Shown: in pieces, positions 29,095 to 54,000 of the stretch
Position numbering within the stretch: the first letter of the stretch is position 1
Layout of the letters: every line of letters begins with the position of its first letter
Source of the DNA: Mesaphorura yosii
Taxonomy: Eukaryota > Arthropoda > Collembola > Poduromorpha > Tullbergiidae
Assembly (NCBI GenBank): GCA_009869945.1
Contig: WIXG01000295.1
Coordinates: forward strand, 35,529 to 99,528
Direction of reading: 5' to 3'
Length of the DNA: 64,000 nucleotides
Made by a program: the position numbers and the translations under genes
Notes under the pieces: model-generated
What the model was told of the DNA's origin: nothing
What the model saw: only the letters and a program-made list of their open reading frames with translations
Database searches by the model: none

Positions 29095-32000
29095 ATGATG
29101 ACGGATACAATCTCCATATCAGATCGGATGTCATCCAACTCCGCTTCAATGACATCCCTGAATCAACTCGGCGGCGTTGGTGCTGGAAGTCTAGCGCATG
29201 TCAACTTAGCTCAGAGCGAATCGGGTCACACGAATCCCAGAACAACGACCATTTCAACGATTTCCGTCCAATGTCTCAACTGCCGGATTGTGGTTGCTCT
29301 TCTTCAGGTACGGCGTCTGTCATTGCTCTGCTTTGTGGGCCCTCCCCATTCTGGGGTTTGAACTCTGTAAACCTATTAACCTAAACCCATCCCTACGTTC
29401 ATTTATGGTTCTATAAATACAACCAAATTATTCATTCCTCTCTTTCTCGCGTATCGCGTTCGTGTTCTTGAAAAAATGCTGCTTTTTACGTCAGATTCAA
29501 CATCTGGTATCGAATAAACAGGGTAGCATTCAGGGAATGGATTGAGTTCATGTTTTCCATTGCAGAGTACCGAAGTCCAATGTATTCTTTGAAATGATAC
29601 AGAAAATCTTTCCTACTGCCCCTGAATCTGTTACATTTTTGACAAACACAAGCACCCACTTGACTTGTCAATTCATGGAGAAGCAAACCATGTTCATTGG
29701 GATTTGAGTTGAATCAGACGATGAATGAATGATGAGAATGTACCGTAACCCATCACATCGCAGCGACAGGACAAGTAAATTATGAACCGAACCGCGTGCA
29801 AATCTGATTGAATTGTTCGATTTATAAGAGAGACTTTGGCTCTCATAATTGATTCTAAATAATAATCGTCGTTTATTATCACGCCTGCCCAAATAAGGAG
29901 TTCAAACAAGAATTATGACAAAACTTTTAAACCTGATTTACGGGCTGCATCGTGGCGCAGTGCACTGCGTTGCACCGGCCGGCATCAACAATGCACTGCC
30001 TTTTATGTAAACTGCAATCTGTGGAAGATGAATAACGGATCATGTTTCTCGAGCTGCGCTGTGTTGCGTGCAAGTGCATTGACAAAGTCAGGACATTATT
30101 CATTCAAAAGTCGTGCCCAGCGTGCACAAGTGACACTGACTCATAATTTAATACAACAATGCGAGTTAGTCTGCCTCCGAGAATTGTCTAGTAATTTATA
30201 CGATTCTGTTTGATTTACTCAGAGTCGAGATATATTGACTCTTCGAGTCCTCGAGTCGGCTCCGTCGTTTCACACGATCGGAGAGAATGCAAAGGAAGCG
30301 GAGGAGATGCTGCAAGAACACATGAATGTACTGACTAAGTTGCAGGTATGAAACGCATAAAAGAGCGTCGGGCAGCAAATTAACGTCGAACTCGCCACTT
30401 CACAGAACATAGAAAGCCCCGTTGAGGAGCTGCTCCGAAGAATCGACGCGAGTCTTGTTACAAATCCAAACCCTGAGGTCTACGTTGCAATGGCTGAGTC
30501 TCTCGGCCAAGCATGGAAAGATTTGAATAATATGCTGGATCGAAGACGTGAATTACTTGACCTTGGAGCAAAATTCCACACGTACGCTACTGCGGAGGAA
30601 GGTTCCCTTGAGAAATTGCTAGGTTTAAGTTTATATGTTTTTCAGGAATCACAGTTCATGCCTTACGAAATTGGTTAACACAACAAATGTAGAAGCTGCT
30701 GGAAGAAGAGAAACACTGAAAATGTATGCGGATGTGAAGGAGCTCGGGAAGCGTATCGTAGAACACATGAGCGGTATTGAAGATAGTGCATTATGTAAGT
30801 CGATATTCGTCTTATCTCTGAAATAATCGACGAATGATAGAATAAACTGAATTAATCGGTCATATCGGTCATACATTTGAGCAGCAGTCGCCCAAGTCGA
30901 AGCGATGCTGGAGGAGCTTTGGTTGAGGTTGACACAATGGAAGCAGGAACTGCAAATCAAACAGAAAAGTGTAAACGAGGACAATCTCTTTGACAGTCTC
31001 GTCCAAGAACTCGATGACATTGTCAAATTGAGTGATAAAGATCCTGAAGCAGCCCGACGCAAGCTGTTGCTCCTCATTTCGCGACTGGAAGAGGTTGAGT
31101 TAGGAGACAAATCAAAAACTGAAGTCCTAATCAAGAAATGTTACGAGCAGCTGGACAAGCTGAATCAGATGCTTGAGGTTGAATTGAGTTTAAATCAATT
31201 CCTGTTGGATAACAAACAATTGCATGCAGATAACTTTAAAGCTGAACATGAGCAAAGATTGAGAGAATTAGAAGCGGCTGAGAGGCAAAAAGCAGAAACC
31301 CAGCCTCAGGAGAATGCAGCCTCGGGCGCCGACGCGGATCGGAAAGAATTGATTGACATTATCAAGACACGGTTGAAAATTCGGAACGAGTATGAATATT
31401 TGCAGGAGAATCTTCTGAGTTTCAGGAACGACGATGAAATCAATGAGAGACTGTCTGTGGTAAGTTGAATGCCAAAAACAAATTTTTAAATTCGAAAATA
31501 TACGTCACCAAACATAGGCAGATACGTCGATGTTCCGTTTTCAGGGTCAGCCTGCATCGGGAGGTCTCGAAATCGATGGTGCTTTGCTAACCTTAAAGGA
31601 GAAGCGAGAGCAATTGGAGAATGAGCTGTATTACCAATTTAAACCACAGATTGATGGAATTGAACAGTGTTTATACGACATCGGAGAGATCGGTACTTTG
31701 AAGGTGAGCCATGTCCGTTGCCCGTTCTCTAATCCGCAAACAGTGGTATTGAGATGCTATTTTTTCGCTTGCTCCTCCAGTCTCTGCTAGAGAAGACATA
31801 CCAAATCCAAGCTGATCTTTCGCATGCACCAAAGTTCAATGGCAAGGAAGAGCTAGAGCACGCTTGTGACACGCTCATACATCAGTTGGAAACTAAAATC
31901 AATGCGCTGTACTCCGTGCATCAATTCCTTTTTGAAAATCGTGAGCTGACCCATCCTGACTTCCAACGCCTTCATGAGGAGCAGTTGCTGAAGGTTGTCT

Positions 32001-35000
32001 ACGAACTTCACAATCATGACCTAGAGTCACGCTTTCACGTCCGGCTTGGACTTCGCCAAATGTATGACGAAATGTTGCATGTGCCGCTGGAGTACGACGA
32101 AGAACAAGTGAAGCACTTGTTAAGAGAGGTCAGACTTTCTCGTCCGTCATGTTTCTCATCCTCTTGAATATTAATGGTGCACAAATTGATTTTGCATCAG
32201 GATCCAACTCTGGATGTACGACAAGCACTACAAAATTATCGTCAAGCTAGGCGAATTGACGAACTTCTTGCGACTCTTGACTTCCCACTGCCAGAGAATT
32301 TGGCTACCGCAAGAAATGATCTGGAAGACTTCAAATCTTTCGAGACACTAATACAGGTTGGAGTATTCGTAGCTTCCATTTGTTTGCACCAATGAGTTTA
32401 CGCTACTTGGCATTTCACAGACTCTACTAAACCCACCCAATGAATTGGTAGAGAAGGCGAGGATCAAGAAGGAGAATATTTTGAAATGCATTGAGCTTTA
32501 CGAGATTCTTGAAAGGGTTGACCGGTACGAGTACATCACACGAATAGAACAATTGGAAATGGAATTATTTGGTGAGACGCTCAAGCCAGGGTCAAAACGC
32601 CCATATTTGATCACTTAAGAAGTACCTTTGCATTTAGGTTCGAGCACTTATGCGGAAGCTATTCAAGAAGAGCACCGACGAAGTCAAGAAATAGAAATCG
32701 CGCCGCCAATTCCACCGCCACCGTCGGAGGACGCATTGTACAGCAAGATAGTTGAACTTGAAGATGAACGCGACCGCACCAAGTCCCCGTCGCCTATTTC
32801 GATTGTGACCGCTCGACCGAAATCAGCTAGCATTGAAACACAAACAGAGCAATATTACGAGCCGTACCCACCTCAGTCACCCCCGCCGCTCTTGAATCCT
32901 TTCCAGGCAGAAGCATTTGTACAACAAACTGAGCATTTGATCACGGAGATCTTGGAGCGCCGTGAGCAGCAGTTGGCTCGTTCCAGGACACCTCTGCACG
33001 AGATGGAAACACAGACCTTTGAGCCGCAGCCGATTGAACTGTCGAATGAGGAAACTCAAACCACGATGTTGCTGCTACTGCCAGCTCCAACCATATCCGA
33101 TGAAGGTTGTCAAACAGATGACACGCCAGACTATGATTTCATCCCATATTCACCTCCAATCGTGTTTTCACCACCGCCGACCCCTGGAATCGAGATGGAG
33201 ACGCAAACAGGAGTACACCTCATGAAGGCGGTTGAGACACAGACTTTCACATATCAAGTCTTGGCTAACCGACAAACTCAAACACCTGTGGAGTTTATTA
33301 AAGCTTTGATACCGCCAGTACCTCCGCCCAAACCCAAGTACGTTTTTACCGCTGGAACCCAAACAAGCCCTCCGCCACCGGGGCAGGAACCAACCTTGGC
33401 AGTGAAGCGGTGTGAGGTCGACACGCAGACGGTTGAGTGCCCCAGATTCCTTTCGCACATGGAAACACAAACCTTAGAAGACGACCGAGCACCGGTAACG
33501 CTAGAGCAGTCTGTAGTGACTACAACGACTGAACAGGTTCATACTTACATTCACGAACGAATTGAGCAAGTGCAGGAAACCACACCCTTCCATGATCAGG
33601 GAAGCCAGGCAGGGTCATTCCAGCAGGAAATGGAAACACAAACAACCATCTCAATACCAATTATTGAATCGTCACCCTCGAGCTTCATCTTGCTCCAAAG
33701 CCCACAAATTGCCAAAATATTCAGCAATTCAGAAAGTCAAACTGAAGACACGGGACAGGTGCCTTCCGCAGTTCTCCACGAATCTTCATCTGAATTTAAG
33801 CCCAGTGAGCAAGAAGTCACACCGGAGCGAAATACGCAAAGCTCTACGGTATTCGCGGATTTGATGCCTCAGGTTGTCAACTTGCAATTTGATGTGACGA
33901 GCACGGCACAGGAAATGTGTTTTGCGTCTGAAGAAGTCTTTGAAAAGGTAACGGATTCAGTATGCCGTTTACGAATTTCAGATTTGAATGCTTTGATGTA
34001 CAAGTTGTGGTAGATCATTAGTGTTTGTGCCTCTAGGCTACTTACGAAGAACCGCTTGTGCCTGCTACGCCCATGTCAACTCCAGTGGAGAAGCCAGTTA
34101 AGCATTTCACTGCGCCGCCATATCAGCCAGTATCTGAAGATTTCGCACAAGTCCCTACAGGCGAGGCAGCCCCAAAGCAAGTAGAGCCATCTGTGACACT
34201 TGAGATACCCATCTCCATTGAGAAGACACCGCTGACGGCTCCTGCAGAGGAGAGAGTATGCGCTAGGATACAGCGTCCCACTGCCACAGAAGGTCAGCCG
34301 AGTGAAGCGGTCACATCAGTCTCTCAATACGAAACAAAGTCTAGCATCTTCGAACAATCTTACGTTCTTGAATCTACATCTGAAGGTTATGCACAGAATA
34401 CGGCGGATACAACGGTAAGCGGCAACCCGTAATAAGTACTAATATTTTCCGTAAATTACGAGCAAATATCGCTTATGATGACGGTTTTGTAAATACGGCT
34501 GTACATATCACAATGCTTCACTCTATTTAGATGGAAAAGGGTTCGGGAACTCCGCTTTCGAAAGTTTCTGACCGAGTGAAGGCGTGGGAAATCTATCAGC
34601 ACGAGCCAGACGCTACTGCGAAGGCTCCTCAAATGAGAGCAGCCAAAGATCAGCAACCAGAACTCAGACCATCGTCGATATCAGATTACAGGCTCTTGTT
34701 TCAGAGTCCGAGCCCACCAGAAGTTGAACCTCACCCAGTTCCAACTCCGGGCTCCATCAATGAATTCTGTAAGAAATTCGAAAGTAGTGAAAGCATGACA
34801 CAGATTAAATCAACAGCAGCCACACAGAAGCCAGCAATCCCAGAAAAACCGAAGCGAATTTCGACCGTGATGGAGAAACCAGGTACAAGGTCGGTGCCAG
34901 GAACATCAACCAGAATTGAACCAGGACTCGGTTCGTACAACAGATTATTTGAAAGTTACGAAAAGACCGAAACTCAAACTTCGACGCAAGCAACTGATCC

Positions 35001-37248
35001 AAGTAAATTGCAAGAAACCTTGCAGCCGACATTTGCCACACCCGGTCCTGCTGCCCAGGATTACGACAAAGGAATTGTTTCAAAGTTTAAGCAATTCTTC
35101 CAGTCACACGAACAGCAACCATCGCACACGACAAGCACGGGACATTCTTTTTTCAAGCCGACTCCAGGCGCGTCAGCATTGCCAGCTTCAGTTACATTTG
35201 CAATTCCAGAAGATACCATCTTAACACGGACCTGCCAGAGTTCATCCGCCACATCAACCACAAGAACGCATATAAAAGTTCAGGAAATGGTGAAACCGTC
35301 GACATTTGTCCCGGTCACTGCCGGGGAATGGTCGGAACAATCCGATTATGAATCGGACCTAGACGCGTGCAAAATTCCTCCTATTTGGATACCTCCCAGT
35401 CAACGTGATACCATGTCACCTAAATTTCGCCCTACAACCCAGGCGTCAGCAACACAGCCTCACGTAATTACACCAATACCAATTGTAAGGACGTCCGCAT
35501 TCACATCAGTGCAGGAAAGGTCAGGAATCAAACCCGTTCCACCTCCGAAACCAGCCCTGTCACCAATTCCAAGTGCAGGCGTTGCCGGGACCGAACAAAA
35601 ATCCGCATTTGAGAAGCCAATTATTGCTCTCAAACCGCAAATACCATCTCCCCGCCCGGGAGCAGTCATTACTACTTTGAAGAATGTTAACCCGACTCCA
35701 GTCGTTGTGCCACTGCCATACGAGTCCAAGAAAACATCGATGACCTCAACTCTGACCAAAACAGAGGAAACTAAATTCTTACTTCGACCAATCAAAAGCC
35801 CCGAGTTGATTGATTCTGACCCTGAGCTAAAAATTGCCAGGAAATTTACACAATCTCCGGAATATTTTGTATCAATTACTGCACCGCCGATCACGGCGAC
35901 AACAACCGCAATACAGCAATCAAAAGATAAGCAGTTGAGCAGCGAAAATCAAGAAACTGTTCGCAAATTGTATGAGACAACGACCAGCAGCAGCAGCATG
36001 ACAACGACGAGGAGAATCGTTGAGCAAGAGGAAACTGGCATTGGTGGGCCTGGCACAGCGGGAAGCCCTGACATGGAGCCATACTACAATTGGAGAGAGG
36101 CCACGTCAACAAGCCCATTTTATCCATTGCACGAGCAACCCGGATTTTATTCATCACGTGAGGAGACGCCTGTCTTGCGGAAATCAGTTGAGACGGTGAT
36201 TCCAATTGAACGGGAAGGTGAAGGATATCCATCAAAGCCTGACGAATCTGAAGTCAAAATAATTAAACCGGAACCAATTCTTAAAGGTGTGGAGGTAAAA
36301 CGAGATCCTGACAACAATGCTTCTAATGAACAGCAACCAAATTCGGATTGATGTACCTTATTGTACCCTGCATTGTTGTAAATTACCTGTACGTATTAGC
36401 ATTAAGTATCCTGGAGCCTAGAGTAGAGTAGATTATGTTCTAAAATATGTGTCGCATTGATTAAAATATCTTGATCTTGACTGTGAACGTAGTATTATCT
36501 TTGTTGTATTTGATTCTTCTGATGCACATCGTGTCATTTCACAGCATTCTGTCTTGTGGTCTTTGCTTTGTTCGATAGTCGCAGAAGTAGTTTAGCATTC
36601 TCTTCTAGCATTTAACTTCTAATTTTCCCCGACATCGTCACCATGCTTGCTTACCAACGGATTCTCAGAAATCCAAATCCTTAACCACATATGCATACCG
36701 AAAACGCAGCAAAGCAAGAAGTATCTCGTAATTTTATTTGCGTTCTAGGGAGTAAGATTTATTCCAAGTAAATTCATACCAGCCCTCACCACAGACGAAG
36801 AAGGGTCCACCACGGAGGATGATGACCTCGAGTTTCGCGTGCGACCAAAATGGAGACCGACTGGAATCTTGTACGGCGGAAATATGAAACAGGCCGAAGA
36901 AATTGAACCAAAGTACAGACCAGTTCGAGGACCGTCTGTGCGAGGAATTCTGAAAGGTATTCCATCAATTTTGCTCTTATGTTTCTTGAAACATCAGGTG
37001 CTGATTTGCTGAATCATGCAGAGCCTGGCTTTTATTTGGCGTGCGACTTCTCGTGCGAGTACGGAGTAGTGCCCACTGCAGCTTTTAATACGAATTCAAA
37101 GGGTGGATTGAAAAATAGTTTAGAAATTGTGTTTCCGGCTACAGCGGCATCAACTGCACATATTCTGCCCATACAACAGGCCGGAGGGTTTACGCCCGCT
37201 TCAGGTAATCGTGCTGGCCTTATTGCCAAATCCAAGCTAAATCAATAA
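29095..37248 (+). CDS. CCDC141: CCDC141-like spectrin-repeat protein with TQT (LC8-binding) array
   Basis: Exons: 29095-29307, 30223-30345, 30406-30622, 30693-30794, 30885-31459, 31545-31703, 31781-32128, 32201-32356, 32421-32571, 32638-33947, 34037-34414, 34531-36294, 36749-36956 and 36998-37248; all phases join (about 1984 aa). The first 200 residues match vertebrate CCDC141 (CAMDI, a myosin II and DISC1 partner) in order: TTTISTISVQ, IVVALL, ESAPSFHTIG and YVAMAESLGQAWKDLNNML. Spectrin-type three-helix repeats continue to about 32570 (for example EELWLRLTQWKQEL). Exon 10 then changes to a disordered Pro/Glu-rich tail with about a dozen TQT motifs, and exon 12 has repeated aromatic FES-type motifs. 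No Ig domain is seen, whereas vertebrate CCDC141 has one near its end. Reading through the exon 12 donor gives a shorter form ending at 36351. Likely cytoskeletal, possibly muscle. Confidence 0.82.
29308..30222 (+). other. CCDC141: First intron of the CCDC141-like gene
   Basis: 915 bp, GTACGG to CTCAG, between the codons for VALLQ and SRDIL. No other feature supported. Confidence 0.6.
32835..33746 (+). repeat. CCDC141: Array of TQT short linear motifs (LC8/DYNLL recognition type)
   Basis: Within one exon: IETQT (about 32832), METQT (33003), EETQT (33048), CQTD variant (33108), METQT (33195), VETQT (33231), RQTQT (33270), AGTQT (33352), VDTQT (33417), METQT (33459), METQT (33630) and a SESQT variant (33732). 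A further TETQT is at about 34966 in exon 12. Spacers are mostly 12-30 residues, Pro-rich and disordered-looking. TQT is the established anchor of LC8-binding peptides. Confidence 0.8.
34567..35112 (+). repeat. CCDC141: Repeated aromatic FES/FQS motifs
   Basis: Four to five related segments: VSDRVKAWE (34567), DYRLLFQSPS (34684), EFCKKFESSE (34762), SYNRLFESYE (34930) and KFKQFFQSHE (35080). Each is an amphipathic stretch ending F-[EQ]-S, separated by Pro/Thr-rich linkers. Confidence 0.55.
36295..36465 (+). other. CCDC141: Alternative 3' end of the CCDC141-like gene
   Basis: If the GTAAAA donor at 36295 is not used, the frame continues 18 codons to TGA at 36349-36351, and an ATTAAA variant signal follows at 36460-36465. 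Confidence 0.5.
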
Positions 37249-39010: not shown

Positions 39011-42000
39011 ATGAATCGCGATCAACTGCAACGGCAAGGCTCCGGGCCTCAGCAGCAGCAAACTCAACAACAAACACAACAACAATCGACAACAATGACT
39101 TCGAGACGAACCGAAATGAGAACTAGTCAACAACAGTATACACAAGGTGCCGTAAAGTTTATCCAGATTGAGTTTTGTGGTGTGATGATTAAGCATCCTC
39201 ACTCGTGTTACACGTGTAAGGTTTGAGATTTGTTGCTCCTGCTTGTCACCTGCGCTGCGTCCCGCACGCTGCACTCCGCGTTGGGTTGTTGTATTCAGGT
39301 TTTCAGTTCCGGGTACCGGTTCCAAATTTTCGGCCGGTTAGCTGCATGATTAGACCAAATCGCAGTCGCACCCGTTCGCGTTATAAAATATCGGCAGTAC
39401 TTTCATTTTTAATTTAGATTCACGCTGCATTCTGATGCGACATGTGCTGATGGCATTAGTATTCTTACAGTTTATCAAGTTAATTTTCAATTCAATCCAA
39501 TGTTCACATATTTGCATGGCGGCTCTCGATCCCAGCACTAAGAATCACGCGATATCGCCTCGCCACATAGTGCATGCAGAATTTATGGCGCTTTTCACCT
39601 TAATAAGGCGATGTAGGTGAATGGGTAATGGGTGAATCCTCGCAGCGCTGGCACTGAATCACAAAACTCTTGCGAATTGAAACCCGTCGACGATTTACAT
39701 TTACACACAATACGAATTTCGAATTACAGCGTAGCGCAGGGTAAGATTTAGGTCTCTGCAAGTCAGGTCTGAGCTGAGCTGAGACGCAGAGAGACTAACA
39801 ATGCCAGTGCAAATTCTTTGCGGAGGAGATATGATTATTATATTTCATCCAACCATTTATGGACAACGTTAATTTCAGTCTACTGACAACTGAACTTTTG
39901 CCGATGAATTTACTTTGCCTTTCCTCGTTGTTTATACAAGAGGCTTAAGCCTGATTGCGTGGCCCACGGCTGTGTATTGTTCAAGTGCTGCCACGTGTGC
40001 GACCGTCAGTCGCAACTTTACCATGTTGTGTTATTTTGTATGGTAGTCTGCCGTTACTGATTCATTGAACTGTCATCTTTGACTCGACTATCGCATTAAG
40101 AAATGTTAAAGAAAATAGCATGAGAATTTTTGAACGCCTTGGCCTTTGACGCTTGGAATAATTTCTAACGGTCTGGCTGACGATTTGATTTTTATGAACT
40201 ACTCTTGCTCCATGATTTTTTACTTTCGCTTTCACTGCAAATGCATATATGAAAATTCTGTGCGTTTATATTGCATGCTGTTTGCTTGTGCCTGCTCCTA
40301 ACCCCAAGAATGGAAAATGAACTCATACTGAACTACGAATTACAATTTTAGTTACACAACAAGACCACCAACAATTAGCACAACAGCCCCAACAGCAGCA
40401 GCAACAGATCCAGCAACAGCAACAGCATCAATATCAGATTCAGCAGTCACAGCAGCAGCAACAACAACATTATGCTCAAAGAATGCAAAGTGGAAGGTAT
40501 CCAACTTTTCCTCACATTTACATTTACGAAAATCAGTCAGTCTGCATCGTGGTGGTGCTTCCTTCTTTACCGATTATTTTTAGAAATGATTCTTTACGTT
40601 TGCGTTTCCTCCTTTCCAAAACAATTCAAAGCATACAATGAATGCAATGTGTTTGGAAAGTTAAGCCCAGGATCAGATCAGGCCAAGTCGAATAGTCGAG
40701 TTAGAGTCTTTGCACTCAATTTGAAGTTGGAGCAGACGAGGACGAAGACGAAAGATGAACCGAACCTTCTTTTAAAAAAAGCATAAAACGCTTTTGAATG
40801 AAGCCTGCATTTTACAGTCTGCTCAGACTCGTTTCCTGGTTAAACGGTCGTATTGAGTCCCTTGTCTGGTAGCCCGCACCGGGTTCTCGGTGCTGTGTAC
40901 CACTTCAATAAAAATGCCAGGAAGCCTTTTTTACGACCACACTCCATTTCATGAATGTATTCTTGTGCAGCTCAGCTCAGACTTTCTTCTTTTCGTTCAA
41001 GTGCAATTTTGCAATACAATTCACGGCTAATTAACGTCCATTAAAGCTCTCCACGCCGCTTGAGTCTGAGCTAATTAACTAGCTAAGACTATAGAGTAAA
41101 GGGCTTTGAGTGTTGCGGGGGCCATCCTGTAAACTTGGCTACGTTCCGATGTTATTGGTAAAATGAGATGAAGGTGAATGAAACGATTGATTTTTCTCTA
41201 CAGCCCTCCGGTCTTCGAACAGATATTTCGGAATGCCAGATTCGCTCAAGGAGGCCAAGCCACATTTGAGGGACGTGTCCGTGGTAATCCGAAACCCACA
41301 GTTCACTGGGTTAGAAAGGGACAGACTCTACCACGTAAGTTTTACCAAGCCAAGATTAAAATCGTGATTAGGAAATGCACCTCACTCGTGTCATGTTGTG
41401 TCTTCATCTTGAATTCTTGCCATGGTACGACAGAGCCAAAATGGCGTATCCACGTCTATCGCCATTCGCCTGCATAAATCGACCTCGCGTCTCAGTTAGT
41501 CTCGCCTCCAAGATGAATTAGCTTTTAGCGTGGATATTTTATTCTATGAAACTTAGTCATTATTTTGAATTCAAAAAATTTATACAGCGACCCACGCAGA
41601 AGTGAGGGCTCGTAATCCACGAGTTGGCAGCGTTGGCCACCTTCCAGAAAATATGTAATGCTTCGAGACTCTACATTTCTTTTGTTTCTCCGTAAGCAGC
41701 AGGCGATAGCGATAATATTCATTCTCAGAACTGAGAACCCATAGCCGCAATAACAAGCATTGGTATTGGCTGAATTTCAGTGAAGCAGAAGATAGAAGAC
41801 GTGGTCTCCCGTCTCTTCGATAACGTTAATTTGATTTGCCAAAAGTTCACACAGACACCCACAGTTCAGAAGAGTTGGACACTTTCCTGTCATTATAATT
41901 GCCACAGTTCATAGCAATCGCATTGACTGATGATGACAGAAGATTGGTGCCCTGACAATTCAACTTTGCCAGTGCGAAGTCCTGACGAAGCTGACGACGA

Positions 42001-45000
42001 GAAATGATAAATGAAATTTCCCAATGTTGCGTTGCGTCTCCACTTTGGCTCATAACATTAGGTCACCGTGATATGACATTGCGAATATGAGCAATGAGCA
42101 ATAAGAATGTGGAGATGAGTTGTGAAGGTGTATTCGGATTATAAATGTGAAAACAAACCGTCCATGTAGCTGCGCTAATAATGTGGGAAGATCTGAATGT
42201 CAGATTGAGAACTGAGAAGAGGTTCATCCTTAGAAAATGTTCGATCATGGCGTGGGTAGTGAAACGATACGAATGCCATATGGATATGTCACTTAGGATA
42301 CTTCCCGAGAAATCGGAGATAAAAATGCAAAACGTAGGAGAATGAACATGTGTCAGAAAAGTCAAGATGTACTTGCAGCTCGAAAATTGTATAAATTCTA
42401 TTCCTGCTATGATAAAGCTTGAAACCCTTTTGCATTATGTCAAATATTTGCAACTATAATAGATGCATTTGAAAAGCTTTATGGTGATGTCTAGCGTTCT
42501 GAGTACGGATTTGTGTTTCAGCGTCAGCAAAGTTCCAGATGCGATACGATGAGATGACCGGCCGAGTGATCTTCCAAATCAACAACATTAGTAGCGCTGA
42601 TGAAGGTCTTGAAAATATGAATACTTGCAATTATGAATTATTTTGCACACTATTGCATTCATGCCTTATCTGATTAGGTGATTACACATGCGTCGCGAGG
42701 AATCCTCACGGAGAGGCAATTTGTACTGTCTCAATTCAACCCGAAGGTAATTTAGACATAGATAAATCAGTATGATTGCATGAAATGCGCTGAAACTGAA
42801 ATGAGTAACTTCTTATCAATTTGACGAACTGTAGCTCAAGTTGTTACCGATCAGCGAAGTCAGCAGGAAGAGGAACAGTACCTTCAGCAGCAGCAACTTC
42901 TGAGGCAGCAACAGGTCCTTCAGCAGCAGCAGCAAGCCCAGCAATACTCTTATCAGCAGCAAATAATTCATGAACAATCTCAGCAGCAGCAGCAACAATA
43001 TTATTTGCAGCAACAAGAGATCCAGCGGCAGCAAATGGAAATCCAGAAGCAGCATAGAATACGGCAGCAACAATTACAGCTGGAGGAGCAGCAGCGGCAG
43101 CAGCTACTGAAAGTCCAACAACAGCAGCAATCAAGACAAAATGGATACGACTCGGCGACAGAGTTCAAAGTGGATACTTTTGAGTACCGAATTCTCCATG
43201 AGACAGAGTACCGGCAAAAGATAACGATGAGATTCAGCGGTGAGCAGGATGCAGCACTTGCAATACCCGTTGGGAAAGCAGTTCCTGTCCAGATTACTCA
43301 AAAGCTGAGAAACAGCAAATTGTTGGAAGGCTCAAATGCAGTCTTCCAAATCAAGTACAATGGAAACCCGCCACCGAGGGTAAATGGCTAGCGAGCACCT
43401 TTGCCCTATGCCAGCCCAGCAAGTTGGATGCGAATTTATATACAATCGTTCGCTTATTTCTAGGTCACATGGTTCAAAGATGGTAATAGATTACTGTCAT
43501 CGAATCGTGTGAGCATTACGACAACAAGCACGGTATCAACATTGGAGATCAGAATGGTACTTCCTGAGGACAGCGGACATTACACTGTACGGAAGTATTC
43601 CGAATTATCCGAATTGCGTCTTGCACACGCAAAATGCTAATTTCTTGTCCGTCATTTCAGGTATTATTGGAAAATACTGCAGGATGTCTTGTCCAAAGCG
43701 CATATCTTGCCGTGGAGAAAACTGAACAGGAAGCTGACATGGAACAGAAGGCTCTGGCTCCGTCCTTCCTTCGCGTGCCGCAAGATCAGGAAATTCAGGA
43801 GTACAAGCAAGTGAGGATCGAGTGTCGTGTTGCAGGACGCCCTTATCCTCAAGTAGAATGGTTTATTAACGGGCTCTTACTTCGCAACGACAGTAGCCAT
43901 AAAATTCTTGTAAATGAAGCCGGTAACCACGCTTTACTCATCACAAGTGTTAGCAAGGGCGATGCAGGTGTGCTCACTTGCGTGGCCAAGAATAATTCAG
44001 GAGAGGCCAAATTTAGCATCAATCTCAACGTCATCGAGCGGGAATCTGTTATGGCCCCCAAGTTTGTGGAGAGGTTCTCCACAGTCACCTGCAAGGAGGG
44101 CGAACCACTCATGTTGTTTGCAAGGGCAGTGGGAAATCCAATTCCACGGATAACCTGGCAGAAAGATGGAGTTTTACTTCATGAATCCGAGAATGTTACT
44201 ATCAACACTCAAAATGGAGCGTCTCGCCTTGACATTGCGTCCGCAAGAGCGTCGGATGCAGCCTGGTACCAATGCACTGCGCAGAACTCTGCGGGCTCAA
44301 CTGCAACCAGAGCTAGAGTTTTTGTTGAAAAGGAACAAGAGTTGAGAGCTGAACCTTGGAAGCTTAGTTTGCCAAAGCCCAGTAAAGTTATTGAGCCAGA
44401 GTAAGTAAGAAACTTTAATTCAGTTCTTTCTATGTAAAAGAAGTTAATCACATATGCATGTGCTTTAGAAAACCTCCATCGCCCGAAATTATTTATCTTC
44501 GGCATATTGAACGAGCACATCGGCAAGTCATCAGAACAGAAGAGGAGCGAGTGTATGACCCGCCCGTATTTCTGACGCCGTTGAAGGATGTCACGACCGT
44601 CGAGGGGTCTCGGGCTCATTTTGAGGCTAAAGTCCACCCTGTTGGTGATCCTACGATGCGCCTGGATTTTTACTTCAATGGCAAGAGCCTCAGCGCCAGT
44701 TCTAGAGCCAACATCACATACCGATTTGGATTCATCGCTCTGGACTTGCTCAGTCTTGTGGTTGAAGATTCTGGCGTCTTTACATGTGTCGTCAGTTCGG
44801 CAACGGGAAGTGCAGAATCCAGCGCAACACTGAACGTTATCGGTAAGAAGCCCTGCACCTCTCACGCGCCCAATGAAATGGCGAGTAAAGCATAAAAATC
44901 TTGCAGCCCGACAATCAATTGAGCAAAAGCCGCAGCACCCTGAAAGCTGGGCGAGAATTCAGCAAATTGAAGACTATTCTTCACGATACTATCGAAGGCA

Positions 45001-48000
45001 GGAGACTGTCGAAGAAAAATTTGAGCCTCCTCGATTCACAAAGGAACTGATCAACTTAGGCCAACGTGATGAAGGTACGAGTGACAATCAAAGAATGCAT
45101 TGGAAATTAAGAACCCTTAACGTAACTCTGGCTTTATTGTGTCGCGTAGGTACCAATGCCCATTTTGAGGCCATGATCTATCCTACGTCGGATCCAAGTA
45201 AGACGAAGACCTCTGCCATTTTTAACCGCCGAAGATTCTAAATGAAATGCTACTTTTCGAAATTTCAGGCATGCGTGTGGAGTGGTACAAAGACGGGAAG
45301 GCAGGTAACTGACCAGCTACTTAATCACCAATCCTGAACACCTTGAGCATACTGGTACTACTAACAATGATGTGGTTTTCTCTCATTTAGTCACTGCTGG
45401 CTCACGAATTCGCAATGTTTTCAACTTCGGATATGTGTCGTGCAACATAATGCATCTTCGAGCGGAAGATTCTGGCCTGTACACCGTCCGCGCCTTTAAC
45501 AAGGTAAGAAATATCTATTAATAATAAGGCTTGAAAATAGATCTGGGTTACTGAACGTATGTTTGACCTTACAGGTTGGTGAGGCCACGAGTTCAGCTCA
45601 ACTATATGTGAAACGTAAGGATGCTTTCAACAACTGCTCAGTTATTATATGGCATGATTCGTCTATGAACCATAATCGGAATTGTCTTTTGAATCAGCGG
45701 CAGCATCCGTTACGGCGAGTCTTGGAATTCCTGAACAACAAAGCTACATTCAGAGCGTGGAAGAATTGGAAGCTTACAGTCAAATGAATCAAATGCGAAT
45801 AATGGAGGAGACCATCGAGTCGACGAGTGCACCGATCTTCAAGACACCAATTCGAGACCAACTCTCAATCCGGGAACATGGCTTCTGCCACTTCGAAGCT
45901 CGACTTGAGCCCGTTGGTGACAGCACGATGGTCGTCGAATGGTTCAAGGATGGAAAGGCAATGGAAGCCAGTGAGTGACGGCTCCCAAGCAAGATTGTAG
46001 AAATCCTCCATTATCTAATCCTGCTTATGCTCATGAAATGTATTTCAGGCAGCAGAATAACAAGATTTAACAACTTCGGATACGTCGCCTTAACCATTAA
46101 GCAAGTCACTGCGCTAGATGCTGGAACTTACACTTGTAGAGCAACCAATTCTAAGGGGCAAGCGTCAACGACTGCTCAACTGACCGTCAGCGCCAGGGAA
46201 AATATTCTTGTGGACTCACAGCACATGGAAACTCTTGAAAAGCTGCAGTATCTGGAGGACAGTTCAAAGTATTCTCGACGAGTCGATGAAACGGTAGTTG
46301 AAGTCCGGCCAAAATTCTTAGGACCATTGAAAGGAACAAATCGCATTCGTGAAGTAAGTTCATTCGGACAGATTATCTCGGTGTTGGAGTGTTGATTGTC
46401 CCTTTCGTCTTTTCTAGAATCAAAGGGCTCACTTTGAGACAAGACTTGAGAATCCATCAAGCGATGACACAATTACATGGTACAAGGACGGGCAGGTTTT
46501 GCAGAGTGCTAACCGCAGTCACTGCTTCTCGAATTTCGGGTACGTTTGCTGCATAAACGGATGTTGTTATCTACCTTGCAGCTCACCATATAAAATTTAA
46601 AAAAACAGATTCGTAAGCTTGGACATTGTCGGAGTTCGTGAGTCGGACTCTGGAACTTACACTGTCGTCGCCAAAAATTCCGCTGGCCAAGACCAAGTCT
46701 CTGCAGACATGGTGGTCGAATCACTTCAAACTATTGACACCAGCTCAATGCACCACATCAGAGAGAAAGAGGTTCACCACCGAGTGGAGCACGTCACCGA
46801 GCTCCCAAGAGTCAAGCCTCGATTCGTGCAGCAGCTGAACCAAATTGGAGACGTTTTTGAAGGAAAGAATATTCACCTCGAGTGCAGATTGGATTCTACA
46901 AACTTGGACCCTGGAACAAGAATCGATTGGTTTAAGGATGGTGAGATACGAATAATCAAGTAGACAAATTCATGTCAATCTCTGTTTAAAATGTTCCAAT
47001 TATTCCATATTCAAAATGCAGGCAAACCCTTAACGGTGGGATCAAGGTAAGGCAGGACGAGGGAGGAGATCGGAGCTCATATTTTTAGACCATGTTGCTT
47101 AAATATTTCCTACTTTACAGATTTCATCACTATTTTGACTTTTCTTATGTTGCACTTGACATTACACAAGTGACCAGTCTGGATTCGGGAACATACACTG
47201 TTGTAGCAAGCAACCCGCTTGGATTTGACCAGAGTTCTAGTGTAGCACGGGTGATTTCAAGAAGCACAATTGACACAAGCACCATAAATGAGAGCGCATT
47301 AGAAATGATTGAGTACTTGGAAGACGAGAGTAACAGATTCAAACGACGAGCAGACGAAGAAATTACGGAGCGAAGACCGCCTGTGTTTATACGTCCGCTG
47401 AAAAATATTCAGACCATTGAATTATCAAACGTGCATTTGGAATGCCGTCTTGAGAATGTCAGCGACGATTCTCTGAGGCTCGAATGGTTTGTGAATGATC
47501 GACCGATCACCGTTGGTCATCGCTTTCGGCCTGCCCATGAACTTGCTGGCTATGTGGCCCTGGACATTCTGAGCCCATACACGACCGACTCAGGCGTTTA
47601 CACGTGCAGGTAGGTTTTGGCGCTATGAAATTCAGTACAATACGAAATGTTAACGAATAACTTCAACAATGAAATATCACACAGAGCCACAAATGCAGTC
47701 GGGCAAGCGGTTACATCTTGCACTCTCAAAGTTATCTCCCGCAAAGATGCTGAGCTTGGCCAAATGGGATCGGGAGCCAACCTTCAGCAGCTGCAATATT
47801 TGGAGGACAGCAGCCGATACAAGAGAACCGAGCAAGTCGAGCAGGAGTTCTTCCAGAAGCCCAAATTCTTAACCCAGCCAAAGAACTTAATTTTGAAGGA
47901 AGGACAGCTTGCTCACATGGAATGCAAGTTGGAACCGGCGAATGACCCCAATCTAGCGGTACGATTTCGCAGTGCATTTCGTACTAAGTGTCAGTATTTT

Positions 48001-51000
48001 CATAATCTTCATAATTTTATCTCGTGTTTCAGGTTGAATGGTTCAAGGACGGTGAGGCTGACGTTTACTAAAGAATTCGTCTTCTTATCGGTTAACATGG
48101 TTTAAAGATTCACATTCACATTCCAGGCCGGCCACTTCAACAGGGCTCTCGATTTAAGCCAATTCATGAACTCAACTATGTCGGACTTTCAATTTCGAAT
48201 ATAATTGACACTGACAGCGGAATTTACACTGCAGTTGCAACCAATCTGGTTGGAATGGACCAAGTGCAATGCGAACTGATTTGCAAGTCGGGTAAAAGCA
48301 TCATTACGCAGAGGCAAATTGAGACGAGCAACATAGAACGATTGGAGAAGGGTGAAAAACGTGGTGCTAAACGCGAGTATGTCGAAGAGCTTGTGACAAC
48401 CCAAGCTCCGGTTTTCACCACATCGCTGAAGAATATCGAAGTTCGAGAGGTAAACTTGCCAAGAACTCCAAGAACTTGCTTGATTAAACTCGTAAAGTAT
48501 AACATATTAATTACGTGATGCATGCGTGATTTAGGGCCAGCGAGCACATTTTGAGTCAAGACTGATTCCCGTGTCGGATCCAACGATGAAAGTAAAATGG
48601 TATTGTAATGGCCAGCCTCTCAAGTCTGGCTCAAGATTTTCGGAAATAATGTCCTTTGGATTTGTTGGACTGGATGTTGCACAAGTCACAGCGGATGACA
48701 TTGGAGAGTACACTTGCGTCGCAACTAATGCGGTAAGACCGAATTAATTTCCTCATCGTTCATCACGTTTAAATTCGAAATTATTTTGCCTTTCACAGCT
48801 AGGAGAGGCCATGACTGCTGGAACGCTGAATGTTCAGAGTAAGATTACAAGCTTTCTCGCTTGAGAGAACTTATAACCATGAATTGTACACGTCTGTAGC
48901 ACTTCAAAGAATTTCGACTGAAACGCTGAATGAATCGTCACTTGCACAAATTCATTACTTGGAATCGCGTCATCACACTAAGGCGGTTCAAGAAGATGCT
49001 GTTCATCAACCGCCGTTATTTACACAGCCAACCAGGGACATTACAAGATATGAGGGCCAACCCGTCCATTTTGAGGCTAGGTATTCACGGCGTTTAGCTA
49101 AACCATGTTCTTGGCTTGGCACTTCTAATGACCACCAATTTTTGTAGACTTATTCCTGTCGGGGATCCGAACTTGAAGGTTCAGTGGTTCAGAAATAACC
49201 GTGAGTAAAAATTCGCAGCTTCTAGAGAGTAGCGATTTCACATCCATGCTCACTAATGATTTTTCTTTCCTATTTTAGAACCAGTGGAATTGTCGAATCG
49301 GACCAATTTCATTCACGATTTTGGTTAGTTCACTTAGTCATTCATGAAAACAAGCGTATTTAATCTTTTCCATTTTAGGATTCGTATCATTGGATATGAA
49401 ATACTGCCGCATTGGAGATTCTGGAACGTATACATGCGTTGCCACCAATAAGGTTTGTTAAACCTCTTTTACAAAAGCTTTCGAATCAATCGCGCCTTTT
49501 GCTAATGCCCATGGTTTTGACGGGTTTAGCTTGGGGAAGCTGTTACGTCATCAAAACTGGTTATCCTCAGCAAATCTGAGATCCCGGCTGACAACTTGGA
49601 AGCGCTTGAGAAAATCCGAATGCTTGAGGATCACGCCAAATATGGAAGGCGTGAGGAAGAAGATGTGGAGTATCGCGTCCCACCCAAATTCATTATTCCG
49701 CTTCAAGGCAAGACGGAATTGTGGGAAGGTCACTCGTGTCATCTGGAAACACGAGTAGAACCTCATCGCGATCCTAATCTCAAAATTAGTTGGTACAAGG
49801 ACAACAAGGAAGTATTAATCGGATCTCGCTTCAAGCCAACGCCAACACCGGACTTCGGATTCTGTTCAATTGACGTCCTGGATTTGATACCTTCGGATGC
49901 GGGAGAGTATATTTGTGTGGCAGAAAATAAGTACGGTAAAGATGTGACCAGATGCAACATCAAAGTTAAAGGGAGAGGAAGCTTGGACTTGGACACTCAA
50001 CATGAAGACTCACTGGCCAAAATTCGAACTCTGGAACAACCAATGAAGCGACCCAAGATTGAAGAAGAGGTACCGATTGAGAAGCCTCAATTCATTCGAC
50101 CTCTGGCAAACGCCATGGCTAAAGAAGGCCAGCCGATTCATTTGGAGGCGACTGTGATCCCAGTTCATGATCCCAATCTTAAGGTCGAGTGGTTCAAAGA
50201 CGGGAGGCCGATACCTGAAGGCCATCGATTTAACACAACACATGCATTTGGTTATGTAAGCTTGGATCTGCTATACGCGTACCCAGAAGACAAGGGAATT
50301 TACTCGGCCAGAGCGAAGAACAAGGCCGGAGAGGCAATCACCACCTGCAGCGTCGAGATTTCTGGCTCACCTGGACTTGAGTTAGGAACTCTAGATGCTG
50401 AACGCCTTGCCAAGATAAGAGCACTTGAAGCTTACGAGCACCCGAAACCTGTTGAGCTTGAGCAAGGCCCACAGAAGCCAGTGTTCACAAGTCCACTCAA
50501 GAGCCTGGACTTAAAGGAGGGTGACCACGCACATGTGGAGGTAAGAGTTTTCGGAAGTTTTCACTTCAGAGTATAGGGATGAAACAATGCAGAAACCTCT
50601 AGCTATCAACTATCTTTGATTTATACAGTGCACTCTTATCCCAATTCAAGATCCGAATTTGAAGGTAGAATGGTTCCACAATGGTGAGATTAGATTCAGA
50701 TTTTTCAAGTCCGTTGACAGTTGACGACATGACCAACGTTTTTAAATTCCGTTCTTAGGAGCTCCACTAAAAACAGGACACCGGTTTAAGACAACACATG
50801 ATTGGGGTTATTGCTCCATGGACATACTTTATGCGTACCCGGAAGACTCTGGTACCTACACGGCGGTGGCCAGGAACTTGGTTGGGGAAGCCAATAACAC
50901 GTGCAATATCAACATCCATCAGAAGTCGTCACTTCTGTTGGACAGTCAGCATCCGGACGGATTGGCCAAGATTCAGTCTCTGGAAACACCACGGACTCAA

Positions 51001-54000
51001 CGGCCGGCCGAACCTGATGAAGCGCCCACAGCTCCAAGATTTACATCGAAGTTAACGGGCACCACAAGGGTTATGGAAAGGGAGCGCGCTCACTTTGAGA
51101 CAAGAGTTGAGCCTACGAGAGATCCCAATCTGAAGGTGATATGGTACAAGGATGGCAAGTTGTTAGAGAAATCATCAAGGCATCACGAAACATTAGACTT
51201 TGGATACGCTGCGCTTGATATTCAGCACTGCATGAAGAACGACGAAGGCACTTACACTGCGCACGCCAAGAACACCGTTGGCGAAGCAGAGGAATCGATT
51301 CACTTGGAAGTGATTTGTGAAGGAAACATCATCTCTGAGAGTCAAAGGCCTGAAGGTTTAGAGAAAATTCGTATGCTGGAGGACAAGCCTGTCTACAAGC
51401 CCGAAGAACAGCCCGTGACATTCCAGCGTCCCGTTTTTACTGTGCCTCTTCAAAACATCGACTCCATTGCTGAGAATGAAACTGCCCATTTGGAAGGACG
51501 TCTAATACCTGGTAATCAATAGGAGAAGAGTGCTTAACGTTTTGTGATTTAGCCCTCTTGGTGACAATTTCGCTTACCTTTCTAGTTGGAGACCCGAAAC
51601 TCAGAGTGGAGTGGTACAGAAATAACAAACCGCTAGAGGACAGTTCTCGAATCAAGAAAACTCATGATTTTGGATACGTCGCATTGGACATTACGGGCGT
51701 ACGGCCCGAAGATGAAGGAACTTACATTTGTCGCGGTGTAAATGACGTATGTAACGTCTTGTTTTGCTTTTAATATCTGTATTATTTGCAGCTTTTGTAA
51801 TGAAGTAATTTTTTATTTTAGCATGGCGAGGCGATGACCACTGCCAGCGTTTCTATTAAAGGTAAGGGTTAGTCGTCTAGTAATAGTTAAATTTTGTGAC
51901 CAAATCATTTGAGATTTGAACTCTACTCTGCAGCTAATTCAACAATCTCAACGGAGTGTCAGCACCCGGAAGGATTCAAGAAAATACAGCAATTGGAAGC
52001 AAAACCAGCTGTGAAACCAGCAGAGATGGATGTACCCTTTGGAAAGCCAGTTTTCACTGCTCAACTTACAGGCACAGAGGAATGTTGGGAAGGTGAAATG
52101 CTGGCATGCTTGTGCAAATTGATGACATTGATGAAAACATTTAATTGTAATTGTCAGGCGAAAATGCTCATTTCGAATGTAAGGTGACCCCCGTTGGTGA
52201 TCCTGATCTCAAATACGAATGGTTCATAAATGGAGTAGAACTGCAAATGGGTTCACGCTTCCGCACGACTGCTCAATTTGGCTATATTTCTCTTGACATC
52301 TTGAAAACTGTTCGTGAGGATACCGGAATTTATTCGATCAAGGTAAATGCAATGTAGGCAAAGAAACTTTGGCCAAACTCATTCCTGTCACTGAAACATT
52401 GTCGCCTCTATTTAGGTCTCAAATAAGGCCGGAGAAGCCACGATATCCATATCGTTGAGGGTGAAAGGTACACAATAATACAGTGCCTGCATTTGCGTGT
52501 GAAATAGCTTTTCCTTAACCTGCCCTTTTCACTTTCAGTCCGCCCCGATTCTCAGGGACCGATACACCCTGAAGCCTGGTCTAAAATTCAAGACTTGGAG
52601 CGAGTACCAGAACAGCATCTTCCCGAACAAGCAGAGATTCTTGTTCCTCCTGTGTTCACAAAGAATCTGACTTCATTTGACGGGCTGAAAGAAGGCAGCT
52701 CCCTTCATCTGGACGCTTTTGTCGAACCACGCCATGACCCGCACTTGGTGACGGAATGGTTCAAGAATGGAGTACCACTTGAAAGCGCTACTCGAATTAA
52801 AACAACATTTGACTTTGGTTTCGTGGATTGCACAATTAACGGATTACGCGATGCAGACCAGGGCATTTACACTTGCAAGGCTCGAAACAAAGGTAAGAGT
52901 AATTATACGGTCACTTGACGTCCTTATAACCTATACTGTATTTATTTAGTTGGAGAGGCAGTCACTACATGCTCAATTAAAATTGAAGGTAAGCTAATAA
53001 AGTGCACAATTCACTTCACACGTATGACATCAGAAAATTGCAATGGCGGCGTTAACTTTTGCAGCACGTCCGACGCTAGAAACCGCGTCGCTACGGCCAG
53101 ATGCTTTACCAAAGATTCAGGAATTAGAAGCCCCATTGCCCGGCGTCCCGTTGGAACCAGAGACAGTGTATCCTCATCCAATCTTCATTAGTCCGTTGAA
53201 CAATGTCGAACTTTGGGAAGGTAAGAGCAAACTCCTCGGAAAAATTCAATATTCAATTTACGTAGGATACGAATACTAATCACTTTGATACGACGCAGGC
53301 GAGAATGCTCATTTCGAAGCAATGGTTGTTCCAAAAGACGATCCCAGTATGAAGGTGGAGTGGTTCATCAATAATAGACCACTTCCTCATGCTAACAGAC
53401 ACAAGAGCACATTTGACTTCGGACTGGTGTCACTCGATATCGGCCATTGTTACCCACATGACGAAGGCGTGTACTCTGTGAAAGGTATCAGCAATCAGTG
53501 GATGCTAACGACGAATTTCCTTCTTATGAGTCAGCAATTGAAATTATTATGGTACATTTTTAACAGCAACAAACAAAGCTGGAAGTGTGAGCACTTCGGG
53601 AACACTGAAGGTCAAGAGTCTCAAACCAATTTCAACAGATACAATCCATCCGAAGGGATCCCAAGGGCTTCAGTCGATTGAGCAGGCAGAACAGGCGTTA
53701 GCTGACAAACACCAACGAAGACCGTCACTACCGCCGCAGGAGTTCGAGAAGCCATACTTTAAGCCTCCAATGGAGCCGGAATTCAGGCTGAAAGAAGGAG
53801 AACATTTGTTTATCACCTGCAGAGCTGAGGTAAAGAAATCAATACGGGTCGTTTAATAGTTTTGAGTTAATACGACTTTTCTTTGCAGCCTAAAGAAGAT
53901 CCTGACCTCCGAGTTGAATTCTTCTTCAATGGCAAGCCTCTTGAACAGGGGACAAGGTAGGAAAGAGTTCTTTCGCAAACTTGACTTGGTACTGATCCCA

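What the first reader, a model, noticed from the sequence alone, without database searches (positions are those of the whole stretch)
32835..34980. About a dozen TQT motifs: a candidate multivalent LC8 (dynein light chain) scaffold
One exon has ten exact TQT motifs and two near variants in a disordered Pro-rich tail, and exon 12 adds one more (TETQT). TQT with an acidic or hydrophobic flank is the known LC8-binding anchor; arrays of this kind in ASCIZ and Nup159 recruit many LC8 dimers and zip two chains together. Such an array in a CCDC141-like protein encoded next to titin is, as far as I know, not described, and suggests a beads-on-string polymer in muscle or dynein transport.
Basis: partly seen in the sequence, partly recalled or inferred. 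Interest (0 to 1): 0.85.

Follow-up and report, generated by a model that had tools for sequence, protein, structure and literature searches.

The report
Likely LC8-docking array beside titin gene
An animal gene lying next to a titin-like gene encodes a floppy tail with about a dozen sites that look right for docking the small hub protein LC8, which could zip two copies of the protein together, but binding has not been tested.

Summary
Ten TQT in 437 residues is above chance (residue shuffles: mean 0.5, maximum 4 of 5000; dipeptide-preserving: mean 3.7, maximum 9 of 5000). The array is not a DNA tandem repeat: nine codon spellings for ten TQT, no tandem array reported in exon 10. Flanks fit measured LC8 binders: 7 of 13 motifs outscore at least 24 of 27 published non-binders, 5 are intermediate, and the exon 12 motif outscores only 2. 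[S/T]Q is followed by T in 11 of 14 exon 10 sites, unlike an ATM/ATR cluster. The gene lies just upstream of a kettin/titin-like gene, the place of CCDC141 in human and zormin in fly. Best reading: a multivalent LC8 client of the CCDC141/zormin lineage, spaced more like ASCIZ than Nup159. LC8 binding, conservation and muscle role are untested; no orthologue was found.

The parts
29095..37248 (+). CCDC141/zormin-like gene, 14 exons: 29095-29307, 30223-30345, 30406-30581, 30646-30794, 30885-31459, 31545-31703, 31781-32128, 32201-32356, 32421-32571, 32638-33947, 34037-34414, 34531-36294, 36749-36956, 37022-37248; 1978 aa
   Evidence: GT-AG at all 13 introns, one open frame, TAA at 37246-37248; hand model, no transcript data. 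The exon 3/4 junction has an equally open alternative (30622/30693) and exon 12 can run on to a stop at 36351
30887..31459 (+). Exon 5, modelled as helices; taken as a sample of the N-terminal region (exons 2-9), the rest of which was not modelled
   Evidence: mean pLDDT 78.7, single sequence; no Pfam spectrin hit; Foldseek: 308 matches at E <= 10, none at E <= 0.001
32638..33947 (+). Exon 10, tail with the LC8-motif array (10 TQT, 1 CQT, 1 SQT)
   Evidence: AlphaFold2 single-sequence mean pLDDT 39.2, 343 of 436 residues below 50
32838..32846 (+). motif 1, ASIETQTE (isolated; strong flank score)
   Evidence: above 26 of 27 non-binders
33009..33116 (+). cluster A: HEMETQTF, SNEETQTT, SDEGCQTD (linkers 7 and 10)
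   Evidence: intermediate scores, above 18, 21 and 19 of 27 non-binders
33201..33284 (+). cluster B: IEMETQTG, KAVETQTF, ANRQTQTP (linkers 4 and 5; the best-scoring cluster)
   Evidence: above 25, 24 and 27 of 27 non-binders
33357..33473 (+). cluster C: FTAGTQTS, CEVDTQTV, SHMETQTL (linkers 14 and 6)
   Evidence: above 16, 24 and 24 of 27 non-binders
33636..33743 (+). distal motifs QEMETQTT and SNSESQTE (linkers 49 before, 25 between)
   Evidence: above 24 and 17 of 27 non-binders
34972..34980 (+). exon 12 TQT, EKTETQTS; probably weak or no LC8 site
   Evidence: above only 2 of 27 non-binders; T at -3 as in the non-binder EETETQTC
39011..64000 (+). downstream kettin/sallimus/titin-like gene (Gln-rich start, Ig domains); its exons were not joined here and it probably runs off the window
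   Evidence: I-set Ig domains in the three stretches scanned (49530-50576; 43568-44404 and 47089-47613); ATG at 39011

Best explanation
The gene is the CCDC141/zormin-type neighbour of a titin-like gene in an animal, probably an invertebrate. Its disordered tail is a multivalent client of the hub protein LC8. Each TQT-type motif would add a strand to one groove of an LC8 dimer, and the second groove would take the same motif of a second chain, so that up to about 12 LC8 dimers zip two chains side by side beyond the N-terminal part. Shown: the motifs, their excess over chance, their binder-like flanks, the gene's place beside a titin-like gene. Inferred: disorder (weakly supported), LC8 binding, duplex formation, and use at Z-discs or M-lines (from fly zormin). 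The motifs fall into three clusters of three (linkers 4-14) set apart by longer linkers (19-49), so a partly filled, heterogeneous assembly as in ASCIZ is more likely than the rigid stack of Nup159.
For: Ten TQT against a residue-shuffle mean of 0.5 and a dipeptide-shuffle maximum of 9. Flank log-odds of the 10 exon 10 TQT average 2.56 against -1.93 (sd 0.91) for random flanks drawn from the same exon, 0 of 4000 as high; 2 of 4000 without the four METQT copies. DMETQTE and DIETQTP are measured LC8 sites in fly ASCIZ (Kd 14 and 7 uM), and the OFD1 peptide with NMETQTS binds. T follows [S/T]Q in 11 of 14 sites of exon 10, with T at 11% of residues. Nine codon spellings for ten TQT. Low pLDDT. 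Position just 5' of a titin-like gene on the same strand; recalled CCDC141 matches the N-terminus (lead only).
Against: The published peptides include many TQT peptides that do not bind; my score separates binders only moderately (leave-one-out AUC 0.75). Of 13 motifs, four have a hydrophobic +2 residue, two a small -3 residue, and the exon 12 motif scores like a non-binder. The random-flank control uses the Pro-rich composition of the exon, which probably lowers random scores. No orthologue, expression or binding data. No spectrin or Ig domain found in this gene by Pfam. The human CCDC141 part recalled (1154 residues, without the C-terminal tail) has no TQT; whether its tail has any was not tested.
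Confidence: 0.75

Rival explanations
1. ATM/ATR-type kinase target: the tail is an S/T-Q cluster and the kinase, not LC8, reads it.
For: 14 [S/T]Q sites in 437 residues of exon 10; ASCIZ, the best-known LC8 array, is also called ATMIN, 'ATM interactor' (listing).
Against: Such a kinase needs only S/T-Q (recalled), yet 11 of 14 sites are followed by T (T frequency 0.114), and the -3 position is enriched in M/I/V (7 of 13, expected 1.8), in keeping with the large -3 residues of LC8 binders.
Confidence: 0.05
2. Duplication by-product with no partner: the motif spread by DNA duplication and is neutral.
For: Four METQT copies form an 18-nt family (78-83% to the reference copy), and two pairs of copies are 171 nt apart; three motif pairs share the offset of 209 residues (751/960, 808/1017, 841/1050); the two halves of exon 10 align with score 67 against a shuffle mean of 44.5 (sd 7.5), although the highest of 500 shuffles reached 75.
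Against: Nine codon spellings for ten TQT, no tandem array, no single offset standing out in the ungapped scan, and binder-like flanks even without METQT.
Confidence: 0.08
3. Dynein adaptor: the array recruits LC8 as a dynein subunit, for transport or centrosome positioning, as CCDC141/CAMDI is linked to neuronal migration.
For: LC8 is a dynein light chain; CAMDI is studied in cortical neuron migration, where the centrosome must move (start of abstract of PMC8353494 in the listing).
Against: LC8 is distributed irrespective of dynein, and its two equivalent grooves pair two client chains, so a groove filled by this tail is not free for dynein intermediate chain (inference from that mechanism).
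Confidence: 0.08
4. LC8 sink or sensor: the tail buffers free LC8 as ASCIZ senses it, with no structural role.
For: Mixed long and short linkers as in ASCIZ.
Against: No known regulatory domain found by Pfam in this gene; position beside a titin-like gene suggests a structural role (inference).
Confidence: 0.1

Closest known systems
ASCIZ/ATMIN (human 11 verified LC8 sites, fly 7; PMC5963919, PMC10046861)
   Same: Disordered tail, many TQT sites including METQT and IETQT cores, mixed linker lengths
   Different: ASCIZ is a zinc-finger transcription factor; no zinc finger was found here and this gene lies beside a titin-like gene
Nup159 LC8 array (yeast, 5 sites)
   Same: Several sites in one chain that stack LC8 dimers
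   Different: Nup159 forms rigid uniform stacks; here linkers range from 4 to 49, so filling is expected to be uneven
CCDC141 (CAMDI) / Drosophila zormin, neighbours of titin/sallimus (PMC12198301)
   Same: Same strand and place directly 5' of the titin-like gene; N-terminus resembles a recalled human CCDC141
   Different: No Ig domain and no Pfam spectrin hit found here; no paper linking CCDC141 or zormin to LC8 was seen in the searches, whose listings are partial

Membership tests
Multivalent LC8 client | Several TQT-type motifs in one chain, above chance | tested here: met
   10 in exon 10; shuffle maxima 4 (residues) and 9 (dipeptides) in 5000 each
Multivalent LC8 client | Flanks (-5 to -2, +2) compatible with binding | tested here: met
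   array average above random; 7 of 13 above at least 24 of 27 non-binders, 5 intermediate, 1 (exon 12) poor; model AUC only 0.75
Multivalent LC8 client | Motifs in a disordered region | tested here: inconclusive
   343 of 436 residues with pLDDT below 50, Pro-rich; a single-sequence model, so only in keeping with disorder
Multivalent LC8 client | Measured LC8 binding and stoichiometry | not testable with these tools
   needs bench work
Multivalent LC8 client | Motifs conserved in orthologues | not testable with these tools
   no relative confirmed in viral or prokaryotic collections; no eukaryotic collection offered
CCDC141/zormin | Directly upstream of titin/sallimus on the same strand | tested here: met
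   gene ends at 37248 in the model, Ig gene starts about 39011; synteny described in PMC12198301
CCDC141/zormin | Spectrin repeats | tested here: inconclusive
   exon 5 modelled as helices, but no Pfam, PDB-sequence or confident Foldseek match
CCDC141/zormin | At least one Ig domain | tested here: not met
   no Ig hit in residues 1-740 or in exons 10-14 scanned exon by exon; a longer transcript into the Ig gene is not excluded
CCDC141/zormin | N-terminal sequence similarity | tested here: inconclusive
S/T-Q kinase cluster | [S/T]Q without preference for T after Q (recalled rule) | tested here: not met
   T follows in 11 of 14

The most novel reading that the evidence does not exclude
An LC8-zipped rod is built into the sarcomere: in some invertebrates the ancient titin neighbour CCDC141/zormin carries an LC8 array as large as that of ASCIZ, and LC8, known as a dynein light chain, acts as a structural cross-link of a Z-disc or M-line scaffold whose stiffness depends on how many sites are filled.
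Probability: 0.3. Interest if true: 0.75.

Novelty: new member of a known kind. Interest (0 to 1): 0.55.

Why it matters
If LC8 binds, this would rank with the largest LC8 arrays described in the papers I saw (12 candidate sites in exon 10, against 11 verified in human ASCIZ) and would tie LC8 to the titin neighbourhood. The authors of the synteny paper say that the functions of SESTD1 and CCDC141 need study to explain why the gene order is kept. It gives a simple, testable way in which a CCDC141-type protein could act as a dimeric scaffold.

Tried and rejected
Rejected: chance, DNA tandem repeat, S/T-Q kinase cluster. Weak hint kept open: an old internal duplication in exon 10. Led nowhere: own-genome search (no genome held); relatives in viral and prokaryotic collections (7 stretches matched a pattern, none confirmed; 82, none confirmed), searched with the exon 7 product only; PDB sequence search of the N-terminal 699 residues (3 hits up to E 10, best 0.14, unrelated); Foldseek of the exon 5 model (none at E <= 0.001; 50 of 308 rows shown). 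The LC8Pred matrices are in a figure that is not held, so I built a small score from printed peptides: 26 binders (11 of 12 'Y' rows of Table 1, the second MUC4 row dropped, and 7 of 7 of Table 2 in PMC6607443; 6 of 7 ASCIZ peptides, QT3 dropped; 2 from PMC3078936; 4 'weak' rows left out) and 27 non-binders (17 of 31 'N' rows of Table 1 and 10 of 12 of Table 2; the rest lack the anchor pattern used, are a duplicate, or are the shifted BSN peptide).

Papers: PMC12198301 passages and section 13; PMC6607443 outline, results parts 1-2 of 4 and two sections; PMC5963919 passages; PMC10046861 outline with abstract and two sections; PMC12057147 outline with abstract, and passages; PMC3078936, PMC5746249, PMC4095857, PMC5521747, PMC7515907, PMC11199618 passages only; others only in search listings. 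Absence from print rests on (LC8 with CCDC141: 0 papers; 15 of 440 listed, none with zormin; zormin: 25 of 27 listed, titles and starts of abstracts, none naming LC8; 20 of 101 listed; the two listed that hold both CCDC141 and DYNLL1 were opened at those words and report no link; 20 of 61 and 20 of 1,114 listed, no listed paper holding the LC8 term; 25 of 115 listed, none with LC8). The library lacks most subscription journals.

Full report
What is there. The window is eukaryotic DNA (spliced genes; no whole genome held). On the + strand a gene of 14 exons runs from an ATG at 29095 to a stop at 37246-37248; all 13 introns are GT-AG, 60-116 nt long apart from introns 1 and 12 (915 and 454 nt), and the product is 1978 residues. 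The model is made by hand. Two points are open: the exon 3/4 junction, and whether exon 12 is spliced at 36295 or runs to a stop at 36351.

More than chance. Exon 10 has 10 TQT in 437 residues. Residue shuffles give a mean of 0.52 and a maximum of 4 in 5000; shuffles that keep dipeptides, which already keep the many TQ and QT, give a mean of 3.7 and a maximum of 9. Nine different codon spellings encode the ten TQT. Tandem Repeats Finder reports nothing in exon 10. A direct-repeat search finds an 18-nt family of four copies around METQT (78-83% to the reference), and two pairs of copies 171 nt apart. Three motif pairs share an offset of 209 residues. A gapped alignment of the two halves scores 67 against a shuffle mean of 44.5, but the highest of 500 shuffles reached 75, and no single offset stands out in an ungapped scan. 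So some motifs may stem from an old duplication, yet the array as a whole is not a run of copies of one unit.

Does it look like LC8 sites? I scored five flank positions with a log-odds model from published peptides (26 binders, 27 anchor-bearing non-binders; leave-one-out AUC 0.75). Seven of the 13 motifs exceed at least 24 of 27 non-binders (751, 872, 884, 897, 946, 960, 1017), five are intermediate (808, 823, 841, 924, 1050), and the exon 12 motif exceeds only 2. As a set, the exon 10 TQT have flanks that random draws from the same exon did not match in 4000 trials; without the four METQT copies, 2 of 4000 did. E is at -2 in 9 of 13 (1.5 expected) and M, I or V at -3 in 7 of 13 (1.8 expected). 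The same cores are measured binders elsewhere: DMETQTE and DIETQTP in fly ASCIZ, 14 and 7 uM, and NMETQTS in OFD1. Against: four motifs carry F, F, V or L at +2, which the LC8 literature calls not well accommodated, and two carry A or S at -3, where large residues are favoured; and many TQT peptides fail in calorimetry. Weak single sites are nonetheless usual in ASCIZ, where neighbours help each other.

Not a kinase cluster. In exon 10, T follows 11 of 14 [S/T]Q sites, although T makes up 11% of residues; in exon 12 it follows 1 of 8. An ATM/ATR-type site needs no T there (recalled).

Shape. The exon 10 product is modelled with low confidence (mean pLDDT 39.2; 343 of 436 residues below 50), in keeping with disorder but, from a single sequence, not proof of it; a helix is modelled between motifs 1 and 2 (residues 771-798). 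Exon 5, the only N-terminal exon modelled, comes out as helices (mean pLDDT 78.7), but neither Pfam, the PDB sequences nor Foldseek confirms a spectrin repeat. Taking each motif as eight residues, the linkers are 49, 7, 10, 23, 4, 5, 19, 14, 6, 49 and 25. In fly ASCIZ, linkers of 6 and 9 gave homogeneous complexes, 3, 30 and 41 gave mixed ones, and 12 and 16 may already be long. I therefore expect three partly cooperative groups of three and uneven filling overall.

Which gene. Human SESTD1-CCDC141-titin and fly CG15822-zormin-sallimus keep the same order, with CCDC141 or zormin directly upstream of the titin gene (PMC12198301). Here the next gene downstream on the same strand starts about 39011 and encodes I-set Ig domains in the three stretches scanned. 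The gene upstream has PH, C1 and SH2 domains, Vav-like by recall, and is not SESTD1. A human CCDC141 recalled from memory matches residues 50-172 (49 of 124 identical, E 8e-22; shuffled and reversed controls none at E 1e-3; the rest of the recalled sequence nothing better than E 1.3). No Ig domain was found in this gene, though CCDC141 has one and zormin several. Fly zormin is reported at Z-discs and M-lines, and transcripts that span the two neighbours are cited, so a longer isoform here is possible.

How it most likely works. LC8 dimers would bind the tail motifs of two chains at once, zipping the tails into a duplex beyond the N-terminal part (inferred from LC8 mechanism). In muscle this could give a dimeric or stiffened scaffold at Z-disc or M-line. 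The dynein reading is less likely: LC8 is distributed irrespective of dynein, and a groove filled by this tail is not free for dynein. Binding, conservation and place in the cell remain untested, which search viral and prokaryotic DNA, confirmed no relative.

Novelty. A library search for LC8 with CCDC141 returned no paper; the listings for zormin, sallimus, titin and LC8 showed none that links them (partial listings), and the two listed papers that hold both CCDC141 and DYNLL1 report no link at those words. It is a new candidate member of a known kind, multivalent LC8 clients, in an unexpected protein.

Noticed in passing
window 34567-35110 (exon 12): A second short motif recurs: four matches to [DESN][YFRK]xx[LKFA][FW][EQ][SI] at residues 1260, 1298, 1324 and 1381, plus a near copy SKFKQFFQS at about 1430. 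The pattern was chosen after seeing the sequence; 5000 shuffles of exon 12 give a mean of 0.005 and a maximum of 1. Partner unknown.
   Followed up: partly
window about 35335 and 36749-36956: A two-copy block, FVP/FIP - acidic stretch - xPxWxP - PKF/PKYRP, around residues 1505-1550 and 1840-1895; possibly another docking element.
   Followed up: no
window 32831-33743: Motif pairs 171 nt apart, three motif pairs with the same 209-residue offset and a borderline similarity between the halves of exon 10 hint at an old internal duplication.
   Followed up: partly
window 484-28000: Upstream genes on the + strand: an ankyrin-repeat gene with a WGR/PARP-like part (the latter name from reading, not from a scan), an SDR dehydrogenase, a phospholipid-translocating ATPase, and a gene with PH, C1 and SH2 domains; SESTD1, expected from the human and fly order, is not the direct neighbour.
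   Followed up: partly
window 39011-43140: The titin-like gene begins with Gln-rich stretches before and among its first Ig exons.
   Followed up: no
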